The translations under genes were made by a program, and so were the position numbers. From Azospirillum brasilense (GTDB lineage Bacteria; Pseudomonadota; Alphaproteobacteria; Azospirillales; Azospirillaceae), in the NCBI RefSeq assembly GCF_007827795.1, contig NZ_VITI01000001.1:248001-312000 (forward strand): a stretch of 64,000 nucleotides of DNA. Direction: 5' to 3'. This document shows positions 20,772-42,528 of the stretch, piece after piece (within the stretch, counting starts at the first letter, position 1; each line of letters starts with the position of its first letter). The notes below the pieces were generated by a model, which worked only from the letters and a program-made list of their open reading frames with translations, made no database searches and was not told the DNA's origin.

Positions 20772-20784
20772 CCAAAGTCCAATT
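20772..20784 (+). promoter_or_regulatory. PQQ-regulon box 1 (CCAAAGTCCAATT)
   Basis: CCAAAGTCCAATT stands 88 bases before the ATG of the cytochrome c gene at 20873 and in the same orientation. Matching or near-matching boxes precede the c550 operon, the PQQ-ABC operon, the aldehyde dehydrogenase and the second cytochrome gene in this window. Confidence 0.65.
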
Positions 20785-20872
20785 CGGCGGCCCGCCCCAG
20801 CCACCTAAAATGCGCGGCATCGACCGCCGCCGCGACCGGCGCCGCGGAGTTCTGGCTGGGGAGCCATCTCAC

Positions 20873-21265
20873 ATGACCGTTTCCAGATTCGTCATCGCCG
20901 CCGCCCTTCTGCTCGTCGCCGGCACGGCCAACGCCGAAAGCGGACCGCAGCCCAAGACGGCCGAGGAGGCCGCCGGCAAGCAGATCTTCCATCAGTGCGC
21001 GGCCTGCCACTCGCTGGATTCCAGCAAGAACGCCTTCGGCCCGAGCCTTTACAACGTCGTCGGGCGCAAGGCCGGCTCGATCCCGCGCTTCGACTATTCA
21101 AACGCGCTGAAGGCGTCCAACATCACCTGGACCGAAGACAACCTGCGCCACTGGATCGCCGGCAACGACAATTTCGTCCCCGGCACCCGCATGCGGCACG
21201 TCGCCATCACCGACCCGGCGGAGCAGGACTATCTGATCGCCTTCCTGAAGTCGCTGAAGCAGTAA
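20873..21265 (+). CDS. Class I cytochrome c (130 aa)
   Basis: A secreted monohaem cytochrome c. A signal peptide covers about residues 1-21 (cut after ANA), the haem site is CAACH near residue 43, and the distal methionine is in PGTRMRH near residue 104. The layout (GPSLYNVVGRKAG, F-x-YS-x-ALK) is that of mitochondrial-type cytochrome c2. A paralogue lies at 42586, and both carry the CCAAAGTCCAAT promoter box at about 80-90 bases. With the PQQ CXXCW gene next door, a role as electron acceptor of the quinoprotein system is inferred. ATG at 20873 follows GGGGAG. Confidence 0.93.
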   Translation: MTVSRFVIAAALLLVAGTANAESGPQPKTAEEAAGKQIFHQCAACHSLDSSKNAFGPSLYNVVGRKAGSIPRFDYSNALKASNITWTEDNLRHWIAGNDNFVPGTRMRHVAITDPAEQDYLIAFLKSLKQ

Positions 21266-21273
21266 ACGCCGGC

Positions 21274-21308
21274 AAGCCGGTTACGGTACGGCGACCGGAA
21301 CCGGCTTT
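21274..21308. terminator. Bidirectional hairpin between convergent genes
   Basis: AAGCCGGTT (21274-21282) and AACCGGCTT (21299-21307) form a 9-bp perfect stem with a 16-base loop between the convergent cytochrome and CXXCW genes. Only a short T run follows, so termination strength is uncertain. Confidence 0.5.
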
Positions 21309-21868
21309 CCCTCCTCGGTCGGCAGGCCCGCCTCGGCCCAGCCATCCGCCCCGTCGCGGTACCAGAGGACGCGGCGGTAGCCCATCTCCAGGGCGCGCTT
21401 GCCCGCGTTCCACGACATCCAGCAATCCGCCAGACAGTAGAACAGCAGGCCGCGCCCGCGGTCGCCGCCGGACAGCCCCTCCAGGCTGGACCGGAAATAA
21501 CCGTCCAGCTCCGGCGTCAGAGTCCCAAGCCCGACGTTGGGAAGCCAGACGCTGCCGGGGATCTGCGGAAAGGGCTTCGGCACCAGCCAGGGGCCGCCGG
21601 GCAGCGTGCTGCGGTCCAGCTTCATCACATTGATGGGAAGAGCGGCACCCGACTCCACCAGCGCGCGGGCCTGCGCCGTGTTCACCGTCTCCGCCCCGGG
21701 CAGCGACGCCGGGGTCGGCGACCGGTATTCGGTCATCCGGTAGCCGTCGGGCACCGGAACCGCATCCGCTGCGGCGCCTCCCGCCGGCCCGGCCAGCAAG
21801 AGCGCCAGCCCGGCGGCGCCCAGCCATCCTGCGCGCACCACGTTCCCTCCCCGATTGTTCTGCGGCAT
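21281..21868 (-). CDS. PQQ-dependent catabolism-associated CXXCW-motif rhodanese-like protein
   Basis: A 195-residue exported protein with a signal peptide of about 35 residues and a rhodanese-like fold. The motif YCLADCWMSWNAGKRAL near residue 144 carries the two-cysteine CXXXCW-type signature of this family, and LWYRDGADGWAEAGLPTEEG is the usual C-terminal block. Proteins of this type occur with PQQ-dependent alcohol dehydrogenase clusters, and one is present 5 kb away. The biochemical role is unknown. The gene is a single unit, convergent to the cytochrome gene. Confidence 0.85.
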   Translation of the reverse strand: MPQNNRGGNVVRAGWLGAAGLALLLAGPAGGAAADAVPVPDGYRMTEYRSPTPASLPGAETVNTAQARALVESGAALPINVMKLDRSTLPGGPWLVPKPFPQIPGSVWLPNVGLGTLTPELDGYFRSSLEGLSGGDRGRGLLFYCLADCWMSWNAGKRALEMGYRRVLWYRDGADGWAEAGLPTEEGKPVPVAVP

Positions 21869-40346: not shown

Positions 40347-41867
40347 TTAGAAGAAGCCCAGGGCCTTCGGGCTGTAGCTGACCAGCAGGTTCTTGGTCTG
40401 CTGGTAGTGGTCCAGCATCATCTTGTGGTTTTCGCGGCCGATGCCCGACTGCTTGTAGCCGCCGAAAGCCGCGTGGGCCGGATAGAGGTGGTAGCAGTTG
40501 GTCCACACGCGGCCCGCCTGGATGGCGCGGCCCATGCGGAAGGCGCGGTTGCCGTCGCGGCTCCACACGCCGGCGCCCAGGCCGTAGAGCGAGTCGTTGG
40601 CGATGGCGAGCGCCTCCTCCTCGGTCTTGAAGGGGGTCACGGACACCACCGGCCCGAAGATCTCCTCCTGGAAGATGCGCATCTTGTTGTGGCCTTCGAA
40701 GACCGTCGGCTGGACGTAGTAGCCGCTCTCCAGCTCGCCGCCCAGATGGGCGCGCTCGCCGCCGATCAGCACCTTGGCGCCTTCGGCCTTGCCGATGTCG
40801 ATGTAGGAGAGGATCTTCTCAAGCTGGTCGATGGAGGCCTGGGCGCCGATCATCGTGGCGGGGTCGAGCGGGCTGCCCTGCTTGACCGCCGCGACGCGGG
40901 CCAGGGCCTTCTCCATGAACTTGTCGTAGATGCTCTCCTGCACCAGGACGCGCGAGGGGCAGGTGCAGACCTCGCCCTGGTTCAGCGCGAACATGGCGAA
41001 GCCTTCCAGCGCCTTGTCCAGGAAGTCGTCGTCCTCGGCCATCACGTCCTTGAAGAAGATGTTCGGCGACTTGCCGCCCAGCTCCAGCGTGACCGGGATG
41101 ATGTTCTCCGTGGCGTACTGCATGATCAGGCGGCCGGTCGTCGTCTCGCCGGTGAAGGCGATCTTGGCGATGCGCGGGCTCTGGGCCAGCGGCTTGCCGG
41201 CCTCGACGCCGAAGCCGTTGACGACGTTGATGACGCCGTCCGGCAGCAGGTCGGCGATGATCTCCATCATCACCATGATGGCCATCGGGGTCTGCTCGGC
41301 GGGCTTCAGCACGACGCAGTTGCCGGCGGCCAGCGCCGGGGCCAGCTTCCACACCGCCATCAGCAGCGGGAAGTTCCACGGGATGATCTGGCCGACGACG
41401 CCCAGCGGCTCATGGAAATGATAGGCGTAGGTGGTGTTGTCGATCTCCGCGATGGAGCCTTCCTGGGCGCGGATGCAGCCCGCGAAGTAGCGGAAATGGT
41501 CGATGGCGAGCGGCAGGTCGGCGTGGGTCGTCTCGCGGATCGGCTTGCCGTTGTCCAGCGTCTCGGCCAGCGCCAGCACGTCCAGACGCTCTTCCAGCCG
41601 GTCGGCGATCTTGTTGAGGACGCGCGCGCGCTCCGCCGGGGAGGTGCGGCCCCAGGCGTCCTTGGCCTTGTGGGCGGCGTCCAGCGCCTTCTCGATGTCT
41701 TCCGCGGTGGAGCGGGCGACCTCGCACAGCGGCTTGCCGGTGATCGGGGTCAGGTTGGTGAAATACTGGCCCTTCGTCGGCGCCACCCACTGGCCGCCAA
41801 TGAAGTTGTCGTAGCGCGGCCGGATGGCGACCTGCTTGCTGAGCGTTTCCAGGGCCTGATGGATCAC
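40347..41867 (-). CDS. NAD(P)-dependent aldehyde dehydrogenase (acetaldehyde/AldA-ExaC type)
   Basis: A 506-residue cytoplasmic aldehyde dehydrogenase. Seen are the PWNFPLLMAVWK motif, the Rossmann GFGVEAGKPLAQ ... FTGETTTGR, the active Glu in LELGGKSPN, the catalytic Cys in NQGEVCTCPSR, and EIFGPVVSV. The C-terminal HAAFGGYKQSGIGRENHKMMLDHYQQTKNLLVSYSPKALGFF is typical of the ExaC/AldB group that oxidises acetaldehyde. The start is GTG at 41867, after GGGAGGAAA. A PQQ-regulon box lies 143 bases upstream. It would finish alcohol oxidation to the acid. Confidence 0.93.
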   Translation of the reverse strand: MIHQALETLSKQVAIRPRYDNFIGGQWVAPTKGQYFTNLTPITGKPLCEVARSTAEDIEKALDAAHKAKDAWGRTSPAERARVLNKIADRLEERLDVLALAETLDNGKPIRETTHADLPLAIDHFRYFAGCIRAQEGSIAEIDNTTYAYHFHEPLGVVGQIIPWNFPLLMAVWKLAPALAAGNCVVLKPAEQTPMAIMVMMEIIADLLPDGVINVVNGFGVEAGKPLAQSPRIAKIAFTGETTTGRLIMQYATENIIPVTLELGGKSPNIFFKDVMAEDDDFLDKALEGFAMFALNQGEVCTCPSRVLVQESIYDKFMEKALARVAAVKQGSPLDPATMIGAQASIDQLEKILSYIDIGKAEGAKVLIGGERAHLGGELESGYYVQPTVFEGHNKMRIFQEEIFGPVVSVTPFKTEEEALAIANDSLYGLGAGVWSRDGNRAFRMGRAIQAGRVWTNCYHLYPAHAAFGGYKQSGIGRENHKMMLDHYQQTKNLLVSYSPKALGFF

Positions 41868-42010
41868 GGCGGTTTCCTCCCGAAGCGGATTGCCCGAACT
41901 GAATGTCGTGGAATGACGTTTGGCGGGTTGTGCGCCCTGTGTCCGTTCGTCCGATGATCGGTATCCGTCACAGCGCCCCGCCGTTATCGCGGTTTCGGGG
42001 AAGGCCGGTA

Positions 42011-42023
42011 AATTCGACTTTGG
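42011..42023 (-). promoter_or_regulatory. PQQ-regulon box 4 (CCAAAGTCGAATT, minus strand)
   Basis: One substitution from the consensus. It stands 143 bases before the aldehyde dehydrogenase GTG and 97 bases before the divergent wHTH gene, and could serve either. Confidence 0.6.
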
Positions 42024-42120
42024 TTGCAGACGCGCAGGCCCCCAGATTCGGGACCGACCATTGGACGGCAGATGATACCTTGGGCGGAGACCCTTCCGTT
42101 TCCCGGCGAGACCCCAGGAC

Positions 42121-42528
42121 ATGACGACCGACATCCGGCTGCGCTTCCTCCACCCCTCCGGCGCCATCGGCCCCGGAAAGGTGTCCCTGCTGGAGGAGAT
42201 CGACCGCACCGGCTCGATCTCCGCGGCGGCGCGGGCGCTCGGCATGTCCTTCCGCCGCGCGTGGTTCCTGGTGGAAACCATGAATTCCGCCTTCCGCGAG
42301 CCGGTGGTGCGGACCAACGTCGGCGGGCGGGAGGGCGGCGGGACCGGCCTGACCGCCTTCGGCCAGGAGGTGATCGCCCGCTACCGCCGCATGGAGGAGG
42401 AGGCCCGCCGCGCCGCCGCGCCACACCTCGCCTGGCTGGACGAGGCGCTGAAGCCGGAGGAGCCGTCTGAAAAAGGCGCGGAATCCAATGGTCCAAAGTC
42501 CAATGGCCCGGACTCCGACGATCCGTAA
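42121..42528 (+). CDS. ModE-type winged-helix regulator (DNA-binding domain only)
   Basis: A 135-residue protein with the N-terminal winged helix of ModE-like regulators: KVSLLEEIDRTGSISAAARALGMSFRRAWFLVETMNSAF, then the wing GGREGGGTGLTAFG. There is no molybdate-binding (TOBE/MOP) domain; the last 30 residues are a Ser/Asn/Gly/Pro-rich tail (ESNGPKSNGPDSDDP) that contains the DNA of PQQ-regulon box 5. It lies divergent from the aldehyde dehydrogenase and directly before a cytochrome c gene, so it may act on either. Ligand unknown. ATG at 42121 follows CCAGGA. Confidence 0.85.
   Translation: MTTDIRLRFLHPSGAIGPGKVSLLEEIDRTGSISAAARALGMSFRRAWFLVETMNSAFREPVVRTNVGGREGGGTGLTAFGQEVIARYRRMEEEARRAAAPHLAWLDEALKPEEPSEKGAESNGPKSNGPDSDDP
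42493..42505 (+). promoter_or_regulatory. PQQ-regulon box 5 (CCAAAGTCCAATG)
   Basis: Twelve of thirteen positions match the box consensus. It overlaps the last codons of the wHTH regulator and lies 80 bases before the downstream cytochrome c ATG, in the same orientation as for the two other cytochrome genes. Confidence 0.65.

What the first reader, a model, noticed from the sequence alone, without database searches (positions are those of the whole stretch)
20772..42505. A shared promoter box (CCAAAGTCCAATT) ties five scattered quinoprotein genes into one regulon
The 13-base sequence CCAAAGTCCAATT or a close variant occurs at 20772 (+), 31451 (-), 31529 (+), 42011 (-) and 42493 (+). In every case it reads in the direction of the gene it precedes. 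For the three cytochrome c genes the gap to the start codon is 88, 82 and 80 bases; for the PQQ-ABC operon it is 61 and for the aldehyde dehydrogenase 143. The octamer CCAAAGT/ACTTTGG is rare elsewhere in this GC-rich window (I noticed only one other intergenic copy at 39828 and one coding copy near 32625). The right half (CCAATT) recurs 80 bases before the quinoprotein gene itself. This looks like the binding site of a dedicated activator, with the LuxR-type regulator at 25271 as first candidate.
Basis: seen in the sequence. Interest (0 to 1): 0.8.

Follow-up and report, generated by a model that had tools for sequence, protein, structure and literature searches.

The report
Shared switch box for alcohol oxidation
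In an Azospirillum-type bacterium the same short control sequence sits in front of at least six separate groups of genes predicted to serve alcohol oxidation with the cofactor PQQ, and it is likely the docking site of one switch protein that would turn them all on together.

Summary
CCAAAGTCSAAT occurs five times in the 6.24-Mb genome, all in this window; the reversed control gives none.

The box is the downstream part of a ~17-bp imperfect inverted repeat (TTGnAC-N4-GTCSAA). In relatives a -10-like TAnnnT follows after 21-23 nt in 37 of 39 sites. It tracks orthologues of the LuxR-type regulator at 25271 over 82 genomes (61 of 66 against 1 of 16) and stays with the genes where the cluster is split.

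The letters match the published ACTU operator of CrbR/ErdR, mapped at -52 to -36. So this is most likely the class II operator of an AgmR/ErdR-type regulator for PQQ alcohol oxidation: a new member of a known kind. Binding is untested; one copy (39828) is unexplained.

The parts
20767..20783 (+). box (17-bp frame TTGTTCCAAAGTCCAAT) before cytochrome c gene 20873-21265; -10-like TAAAAT 20806-20811
   Evidence: 20.8 bits; 9 of 9 upstreams
31451..31463 (-). box before the pedF operon (cytochrome c-550 PedF, substrate-binding-type protein, SoxYZ-like, metallohydrolase); -10-like TATGCT 31423-31428
   Evidence: 30.2 bits, best in genome; 34 of 34 upstreams
31529..31541 (+). variant box CCAAAGTTGCATT before the PQQ-ABC operon; -10-like TACCCT 31564-31569
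   Evidence: 16.5 bits; 12 of 12
42011..42023 (-). box before exaC (acetaldehyde dehydrogenase) and the DUF779 gene
   Evidence: 16.8 bits; 11 of 12; no TAnnnT found behind it
42493..42505 (+). box inside the 3' end of a ModE-like gene, before cytochrome c gene 42586-42981; -10-like TAAAGT 42526-42531
   Evidence: 15.5 bits; 2 of 3
28138..28154 (-). exaA variant box TCCTACTATTTGCCAAT, about 220 nt upstream of exaA; -10-like TAAACT 28111-28116
   Evidence: (alignment; conserved in the close clade and G010/G028/G029, diverged forms elsewhere); weight-matrix score only 4.5, below the cut-off used
39644..39657 (-). weaker box ACCATGGTCGCATG before the nosP/hybrid kinase operon
   Evidence: 9.9 bits; 2 of 4 upstreams pass, window 13.0; no TAnnnT found behind it
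39828..39840 (+). further CCAAAGTCGAAT copy, antisense to the 3' end of the DUF779 gene; function unexplained
   Evidence: present in L037 and L120, absent in L040
25271..25936 (-). LuxR/NarL-type response regulator (receiver + GerE), likely the protein that binds the box
26162..27913 (-). exaA, PQQ-dependent alcohol dehydrogenase (TIGR03075)
30925..31368 (-). pedF, cytochrome c-550 (TIGR04494)
31603..35408 (+). PQQ-ABC operon: TIGR03863 substrate-binding protein, TIGR03866 beta-propeller, TIGR03864 ATPase, and a permease (named from its place, not scanned)
35542..39536 (-). NosP (FIST) gene and NahK/ErcS-family hybrid histidine kinase
39868..41867 (-). exaC (acetaldehyde dehydrogenase) and DUF779 gene
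20873..21265 (+). c-type cytochrome gene behind the first box
42586..42981 (+). c-type cytochrome gene behind the fifth box

Best explanation
The box is the downstream part of an imperfect inverted repeat of about 17 bp, TTGnAC-N4-GTCSAA, that is likely bound by the AgmR/ErdR-type LuxR response regulator encoded at 25271-25936, which would switch on the genes of PQQ-dependent alcohol oxidation as a class II activator. Shown: the repeat stands in front of the cytochrome, pedF, PQQ-ABC, exaC, second cytochrome and pqqA genes, more weakly before nosP and as a variant before exaA, and in relatives a -10-like hexamer TAnnnT follows the 12-base core after 21-23 nt. Inferred: the operator would lie at about -52 to -36, next to RNA polymerase on a sigma-70-type -10 element without a good -35, so that transcription would need the activator. 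Inferred: a histidine kinase (first candidate the hybrid kinase at 35542) would phosphorylate the regulator during growth on alcohols, and the weak box at the nosP-kinase promoter would add feedback. One regulator would thus match the dehydrogenase, its electron carriers, the aldehyde step and PQQ synthesis to each other although pqqA lies on another contig.
For: Genome-wide exclusivity (5 of 5 in the window, reversed control 0). Leave-out model from 39 relatives' sites, closest clade excluded: own genome gives 6 hits at E <= 10, the top five being the five sites (150 of 459 candidates scored); the sixth lies inside a coding ORF. Near-gene hits 75 against 3 for the reversed pattern. By gene, upstreams that pass: pedF 34 of 34, PQQ-ABC substrate-binding gene 12 of 12, cytcA 9 of 9, exaC 11 of 12, while genes inside operons (abcATP, abcPerm, mbl, soxyz) give 0. 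pqqA: 19 of 26 upstreams pass, reversed 0 of 26 (12 of the 19 are near-identical close-clade forms). Fixed spacing to TAnnnT in 37 of 39 against 1.3% elsewhere. Regulator and model hit co-occur in 61 of 66 against 1 of 16 genomes; by the strict pattern, which owes nothing to the model, the 14 genomes with 4-6 matches are the 14 whose regulator is 97-100% identical. In genomes such as G025, G020, G027 and G031 the exaA/ABC cluster lies on another contig than the regulator and still has the boxes. Same letters and position as the tested CrbR operator ACTU; 6 of 36 pedF rows share 14 letters, TACCATCGTCGAAT, with its acs site. Published proteomics of A. brasilense Sp7: products of these operons and PqqCDE rise together when RpoE6 is overexpressed.
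Against: No binding, transcription-start or knock-out data in hand. A paper title says that exaA of A. brasilense Sp7 depends on sigma-54 together with a LuxR-type regulator, which does not fit a plain sigma-70 class II promoter for exaA. The exaA variant box of the window scores only 4.5 by the matrix and rests on the alignment. exaC and nosP in the window lack a TAnnnT behind the box. The CXXCW protein rises in the proteomics, yet none of 20 upstreams of its gene has a box. The regulator's own gene has a box in only 1 of 50 upstreams. The 39828 copy stands before no gene. 5 of 66 genomes with the regulator lack a model hit (two of them, G016 and G042, also lack pqqB). The co-occurrence test is not corrected for kinship, its cut-off (1e-58) was set, and the model's training sites came largely from regions around the regulator. 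Three pqqA upstreams have a passing site only on the other strand (L131, L144, L151).
Confidence: 0.78

Rival explanations
1. The box is bound by another NarL/LuxR-type response regulator, or by more than one, with the 25271 protein controlling exaA only.
For: Many genomes of the genus hold two to four relatives of this regulator at E <= 1e-40, and in Pseudomonas AgmR, PedR2/EraR and ErdR are separate regulators of these pathways.
Against: The 14 genomes with 4-6 strict boxes, this one included, have just one such regulator at E <= 1e-40 (only 36 candidates scored per genome). The core TTVKAHVSAIL of the recognition helix is identical in the 12 regulators shown for L152-L170.
Confidence: 0.15
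2. The box is the -35 element of an alternative sigma factor such as the ECF factor RpoE6 rather than an activator site.
For: RpoE6 overexpression raises the products of these operons, and exaA and pqqA fusions need RpoE6 for full induction in A. brasilense Sp7.
Against: The fliC2 promoter of RpoE6 has -10 CGTGAG and -35 CGCCAG at 16 nt, unlike the box; the conserved unit is about 17 bp with dyad symmetry and lies 21-23 nt from the -10-like hexamer.
Confidence: 0.05
3. The promoters are sigma-54 dependent and the box is a more distant activator site.
For: Title of the Sp7 exaA paper (seen in reference lists) and use of EraR-RpoN as a positive two-hybrid control.
Against: A -24/-12 pattern with up to 2 mismatches occurs at none of the box promoters that have a gene behind them (one of its 5 matches, 39842-39857 on -, lies beside the 39828 copy; 14.3 expected by chance). 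A -10-like hexamer at fixed distance is conserved instead.
Confidence: 0.08
4. The repeated box is a chance or repeat-family artefact of the GC-rich window.
For: At 3 mismatches the window count is within chance.
Against: Genome-wide and cross-genus data with controls.
Confidence: 0.01

Closest known systems
ACTU motif of CrbR (ErdR), Pseudomonas fluorescens acs and actP promoters (PMC5715377: passages and section 16 seen)
   Same: 17-bp imperfect inverted repeat with the same letters (TACTACCATCGTCGAAT; also TACTACCAAAGTCTAAT among predicted sites), just upstream of an RpoD promoter at -52 to -36; NarL/LuxR-type response regulator
   Different: There acetate genes, here PQQ alcohol oxidation genes; the regulator is below the NCBIfam ErdR cut-off (197 bits against 390)
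[quoted passage not shown]
   Same: LuxR-type activator of the same kind of gene set including distal pqq genes; the same recognition-helix core TTVKAHVSAIL in two Pseudomonas-type regulators of 44-49% identity (L173, L224; AgmR by my inference)
   Different: I found no operator for AgmR in my searches of the held library; Pseudomonas pedF promoters carry a diverged pair, CTACTACCAAGGGACTAG then CCAAAGCAGCAT
[quoted passage not shown] 2017 (PMC5472811, not held; title seen only)
   Same: Same genus, same dehydrogenase, LuxR-type regulator (EraR); I recall, unverified, an abstract naming a 17-bp dyad motif bound by EraR
   Different: One gene and sigma-54; here a regulon-wide operator with a sigma-70-like -10

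Membership tests
ACTU/CrbR(ErdR) operator | imperfect inverted repeat with the ACTU letters | tested here: met
   alignment of 39 sites gives TnGTACCAAAGTCCAATTA, compared by eye with Table 4 of PMC5715377
ACTU/CrbR(ErdR) operator | lies just upstream of a sigma-70-type promoter at a fixed place | tested here: met
   21-23 nt to TAnnnT in 37 of 39 relatives' sites; transcription starts not mapped
ACTU/CrbR(ErdR) operator | acetate-utilisation genes downstream | tested here: not met
   downstream genes are those of PQQ alcohol oxidation
ErdR/CrbR protein | passes NCBIfam NF041830 cut-off | tested here: not met
   197 bits against 390, though it is the best family
AgmR/ErbR-type regulon | response regulator with receiver and LuxR-type HTH beside PQQ alcohol dehydrogenase genes | tested here: met
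AgmR/ErbR-type regulon | controls the ped/exa cluster and the distal pqq operon | tested here: inconclusive
   box present at both; expression not tested
AgmR/ErbR-type regulon | regulator binds the operator | not testable with these tools
   needs EMSA or footprint
sigma-54 promoters | -24/-12 element at the promoter | tested here: not met
   none within 2 mismatches at the box promoters with a gene behind them
RpoE6 (ECF) promoters | -35 CGCCAG, -10 CGTGAG, 16 nt | tested here: not met
   fliC2 promoter letters compared by eye with the sites

The most novel reading that the evidence does not exclude
One operator code, the ACTU-like repeat, is shared from alpha- to gammaproteobacteria by sibling response regulators and runs the whole ethanol-to-acetate route: AgmR-type siblings read it at PQQ alcohol oxidation genes, ErdR/CrbR at acetate genes. 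The AgmR operator of Pseudomonas would then be the pair CTACTACCAAGGGACTAG / CCAAAGCAGCAT at pedF (second element in 30 of 33 loci), and whole regulons could be read off genomes.
Probability: 0.45. Interest if true: 0.62.

Novelty: new member of a known kind. Interest (0 to 1): 0.52.

Why it matters
AgmR-type regulators are known genetic switches of PQQ alcohol oxidation, but I found no operator for them in the library searched. A readable operator with a fixed promoter geometry would make the regulon predictable in any genome, explain how pqqA on another contig stays coupled to its users, link alcohol and acetate control through one DNA code, and make the reported sigma-54 dependence of exaA directly testable against its siblings.

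Tried and rejected
Loose pattern matching at 3 mismatches: within chance. The CCAATT half-site 80 nt before exaA: not conserved. The sixth genome-wide model hit (C10:66435, 13.4 bits): inside a coding ORF, taken as chance. Sigma-54 consensus: 5 matches, fewer than the 14.3 expected; none at a box promoter with a gene behind it, one beside the 39828 copy. Sigma-70 consensus scan, 27900-43000 only: one promoter-like site (27937-27966 +), none at a box. Rfam, 19000-44000: only the tRNA. The Azospirillum matrix outside the family: 4 of 57 pedF upstreams pass (reversed 1, other strand 1), so the exact letters are mainly a family-level trait; a Pseudomonas form was then noticed in that output and counted. 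CTACYANSGNANTAG in 12 Pseudomonas genomes: 17 matches, fewer than its reversed control (50); 13 of the 17 lie directly upstream of pedF or exaA, one beside the PQQ-ABC substrate-binding gene but pointing away, three elsewhere; these genomes were chosen because they hold pedF. Paper search for the motif letters: 17 papers, unrelated by their titles.

Rows dropped or not covered: 5 of 31 pqqB loci gave no PqqA match and were not scored., I gave 63 of the 80 loci., 51 of 146 model hits were not covered by fetched regions; of the 95 covered, 84 lie within 300 nt upstream of a cluster gene and 11 do not. Of these 11 I looked at L109 (pqqAB), L083 (PqqA-like ORF and PQQ dehydrogenase) and L113 (no clear target); for L073 only the like-placed box in L076 was read. 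Regions were fetched partly because they had hits. One search used stricter filters.
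Full report
What was checked. At 3 mismatches the window count (8) is not above chance (5.2 expected, 17 of 100 shuffles reach it), but the strict form CCAAAGTCSAAT occurs five times in the 6,242,579-base genome, all in this window, with 0 for the reversed pattern. Over 82 genomes of the family it has 110 matches against 21 for the reversed control (my count of the rows).

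Gene content. NCBIfam and Pfam name a PQQ alcohol dehydrogenase (TIGR03075), cytochrome c-550 PedF (TIGR04494), PQQ-associated ABC parts (TIGR03863, 03864, 03866), SoxYZ-like and metallohydrolase relay proteins (TIGR04557, 04558), the CXXCW protein (TIGR03865), ExaC, NosP, a NahK/ErcS-family hybrid kinase, DUF779, two small c-type cytochromes and a response regulator with a GerE domain whose best family is ErdR, at 197 bits against a cut-off of 390. The gene at 30071-30928, which I label sbp3871, matches only general substrate-binding families. Named A. brasilense records hold a PedF 95-99% identical (L152-L154) and the regulator at 100%.

Conservation. I fetched 60 regions, most of them around the regulator's orthologues or box hits, and located cluster genes by tblastn. 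Within 260 nt upstream of such genes, CCANNGTCSAAT with at most one mismatch occurs 75 times against 3 for the reversed pattern (loci L035-L087, near-identical genomes included). The motif in 39 sites, closest clade of the window left out, is TnGTACCAAAGTCCAATTA, an imperfect inverted repeat TTGnAC-N4-GTCSAA. In 37 of these 39 sites a TAnnnT starts 21-23 nt after the 12-base core, against 1.3% for equal-width windows elsewhere. In the own genome the sites of cytcA, pedF, PQQ-ABC, cytcB, exaA and pqqA have it; exaC and nosP do not.

Leave-out test. The tool scored 150 of 459 candidates. In the window with filters off, weaker matches follow, among them the nosP promoter (9.9 bits), 21903 (7.3), 39825 (6.9) and the exaA upstream (4.9); the last ones are no better than neighbours without meaning (17 matches).

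Regulon size. By weight matrix over 300 nt upstream, upstreams passing 12: pedF 34 of 34, PQQ-ABC substrate-binding gene 12 of 12, cytcA 9 of 9, exaC 11 of 12, beta-propeller 12 of 34, sbp3871 9 of 27, exaA 8 of 32, cytcB 2 of 3, nosP 2 of 4, SBP2 2 of 12, luxR 1 of 50, CXXCW 0 of 20; abcATP, abcPerm, mbl, soxyz, perm2, DUF779, ModE and HHK 0; reversed matrix 2 in all, both at pedF. The matrix was trained on part of these. The own pqqB lies on contig C5; its pqqA upstream has CCAAAGTCGCAT, 22 nt, TAGCGT. 19 of 26 pqqA upstreams pass, reversed 0, other strand 3; 12 of the 19 are near-identical close-clade forms. Alone the pqqA site would not stand out genome-wide (11.0 bits, below the sixth hit); its position and conservation carry it. 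exaA has its own variant: CTACTATTTGCCAAT in most of the close clade, CTACTATCCGACAAT and other forms elsewhere, followed, by eye, at the usual distance by TA-rich -10 letters; the window's copy scores only 4.5 by the matrix.

Regulator. In 82 genomes an orthologue-grade match to the 25271 protein (E <= 1e-58, a cut-off set) and a model hit coincide in 61 of 66, against 1 hit in 16 genomes without it (Fisher p 2e-11, not corrected for kinship). Part of this is built in, since the training sites came mostly from regions around the regulator. Free of that, the 14 genomes with 4-6 strict matches are the 14 with a regulator of 97-100% identity, and each has one such regulator at E <= 1e-40. In genomes such as G025, G020, G027 and G031 the exaA/ABC cluster lies on another contig than the regulator and keeps its boxes; in G009, G015 and G036 the two halves of the box set lie over 1 Mb apart. 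The recognition-helix core TTVKAHVSAIL is the same in the 12 regulators shown for L152-L170 and in two Pseudomonas-type relatives of 44-49% identity (L173, L224).

Compared with the known. The CrbR operator ACTU (PMC5715377, passages and section 16 seen) is a 17-bp imperfect inverted repeat at -52 to -36 of acs, needed for activation; its acs site TACTACCATCGTCGAAT shares TACCATCGTCGAAT with 6 of the 36 pedF rows. AgmR activates ped and pqq genes in Pseudomonas (PMC12997753, passages and section 19). A proteome of A. brasilense Sp7 overexpressing RpoE6 shows products of these operons and PqqCDE rising together (PMC12826043, passages and section 6); the RpoE6 promoter letters given there for fliC2 differ from the box, so that link is probably indirect. 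ErdR of P. aeruginosa was found on acsA but not on ercS and agmR promoters, and mostly as a repressor there (PMC9927353, passages), and ErdR of P. putida did not bind acsA-I, which lacks the motif (PMC8402216, passages). The Sp7 exaA paper of 2017 is not held; [quoted passage not shown] I recall, unverified, that its abstract names a 17-bp dyad motif bound by EraR; if so, the exaA variant box may be that motif and the regulon-wide extension is what is new. A cited statement (45% identity of that regulator to PedR2) does not obviously match the 28-34% seen here to the other response regulators of Pseudomonas loci, so it is not settled that EraR is the 25271 protein.

Beyond the family. In 33 Pseudomonas-type loci, CCAAAGNNNCAT or CCAAAGNNSMAT lies within 300 nt upstream of pedF in 30, in 26 of them as CCAAAGCAGCAT; the 33 loci hold 32 matches in all, the reversed pattern 1. 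A second element, CTACTACCAAGGGACTAG or a close form, stands just upstream in most rows, and a TAAGAT-like hexamer follows about 22 nt behind (by eye). The Azospirillum matrix itself passes in only 4 of 57 upstreams outside the family. This looks like the same promoter plan with diverged letters.

Verdict. A real, conserved operator-like box that ties PQQ alcohol oxidation into one predicted regulon: shown by sequence, inferred as to binding and activation. New member of a known kind.

Noticed in passing
window 39828-39840 (+): A strict box copy (CCAAAGTCGAAT) antisense to the 3' end of the DUF779 gene, present in L037 and L120 but not in L040; no gene stands behind it. A sigma-54-like match (2 mismatches) lies beside it at 39842-39857 on the other strand.
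   Followed up: partly
window 22087-22161 (-): A 24-codon ORF, MEKILTLLILLLQEIKDILDLLNR, with a good ribosome-binding site, between the CXXCW gene and an ABC substrate-binding gene; hydrophobic small peptide of unknown role (read by eye).
   Followed up: no
window 21903-21938 (+): A weak box-like site (CCCGATAGTCGAATA) about 360 nt before the ABC substrate-binding gene, seen also in L035, L036, L038, L039, L041, L042 and L118.
   Followed up: partly
window 29985-30060 and 35440-35520: Two similar GC-rich intergenic inverted repeats (CCTCCCCCGCTTCGCAGGGGAGG type), which look like a dispersed repeat family (read by eye).
   Followed up: no
L171-L227 (Pseudomonas-type loci): pedF promoters carry a pair of elements, CTACTACCAAGGGACTAG and CCAAAGCAGCAT, the second about 22 nt before a TAAGAT-like hexamer; candidate AgmR operator.
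   Followed up: partly
L083 10630 (+); L109 4489-4528 (-): In two other genomes the box stands before a PqqA-like ORF, followed by a PQQ dehydrogenase gene in L083 and by pqqB in L109.
   Followed up: partly
L076 17609 (+): In G070 a strict box precedes a NosR/NirI-like FMN and 4Fe-4S membrane protein gene next to the PQQ-ABC substrate-binding gene (named by eye from the ORF).
   Followed up: no
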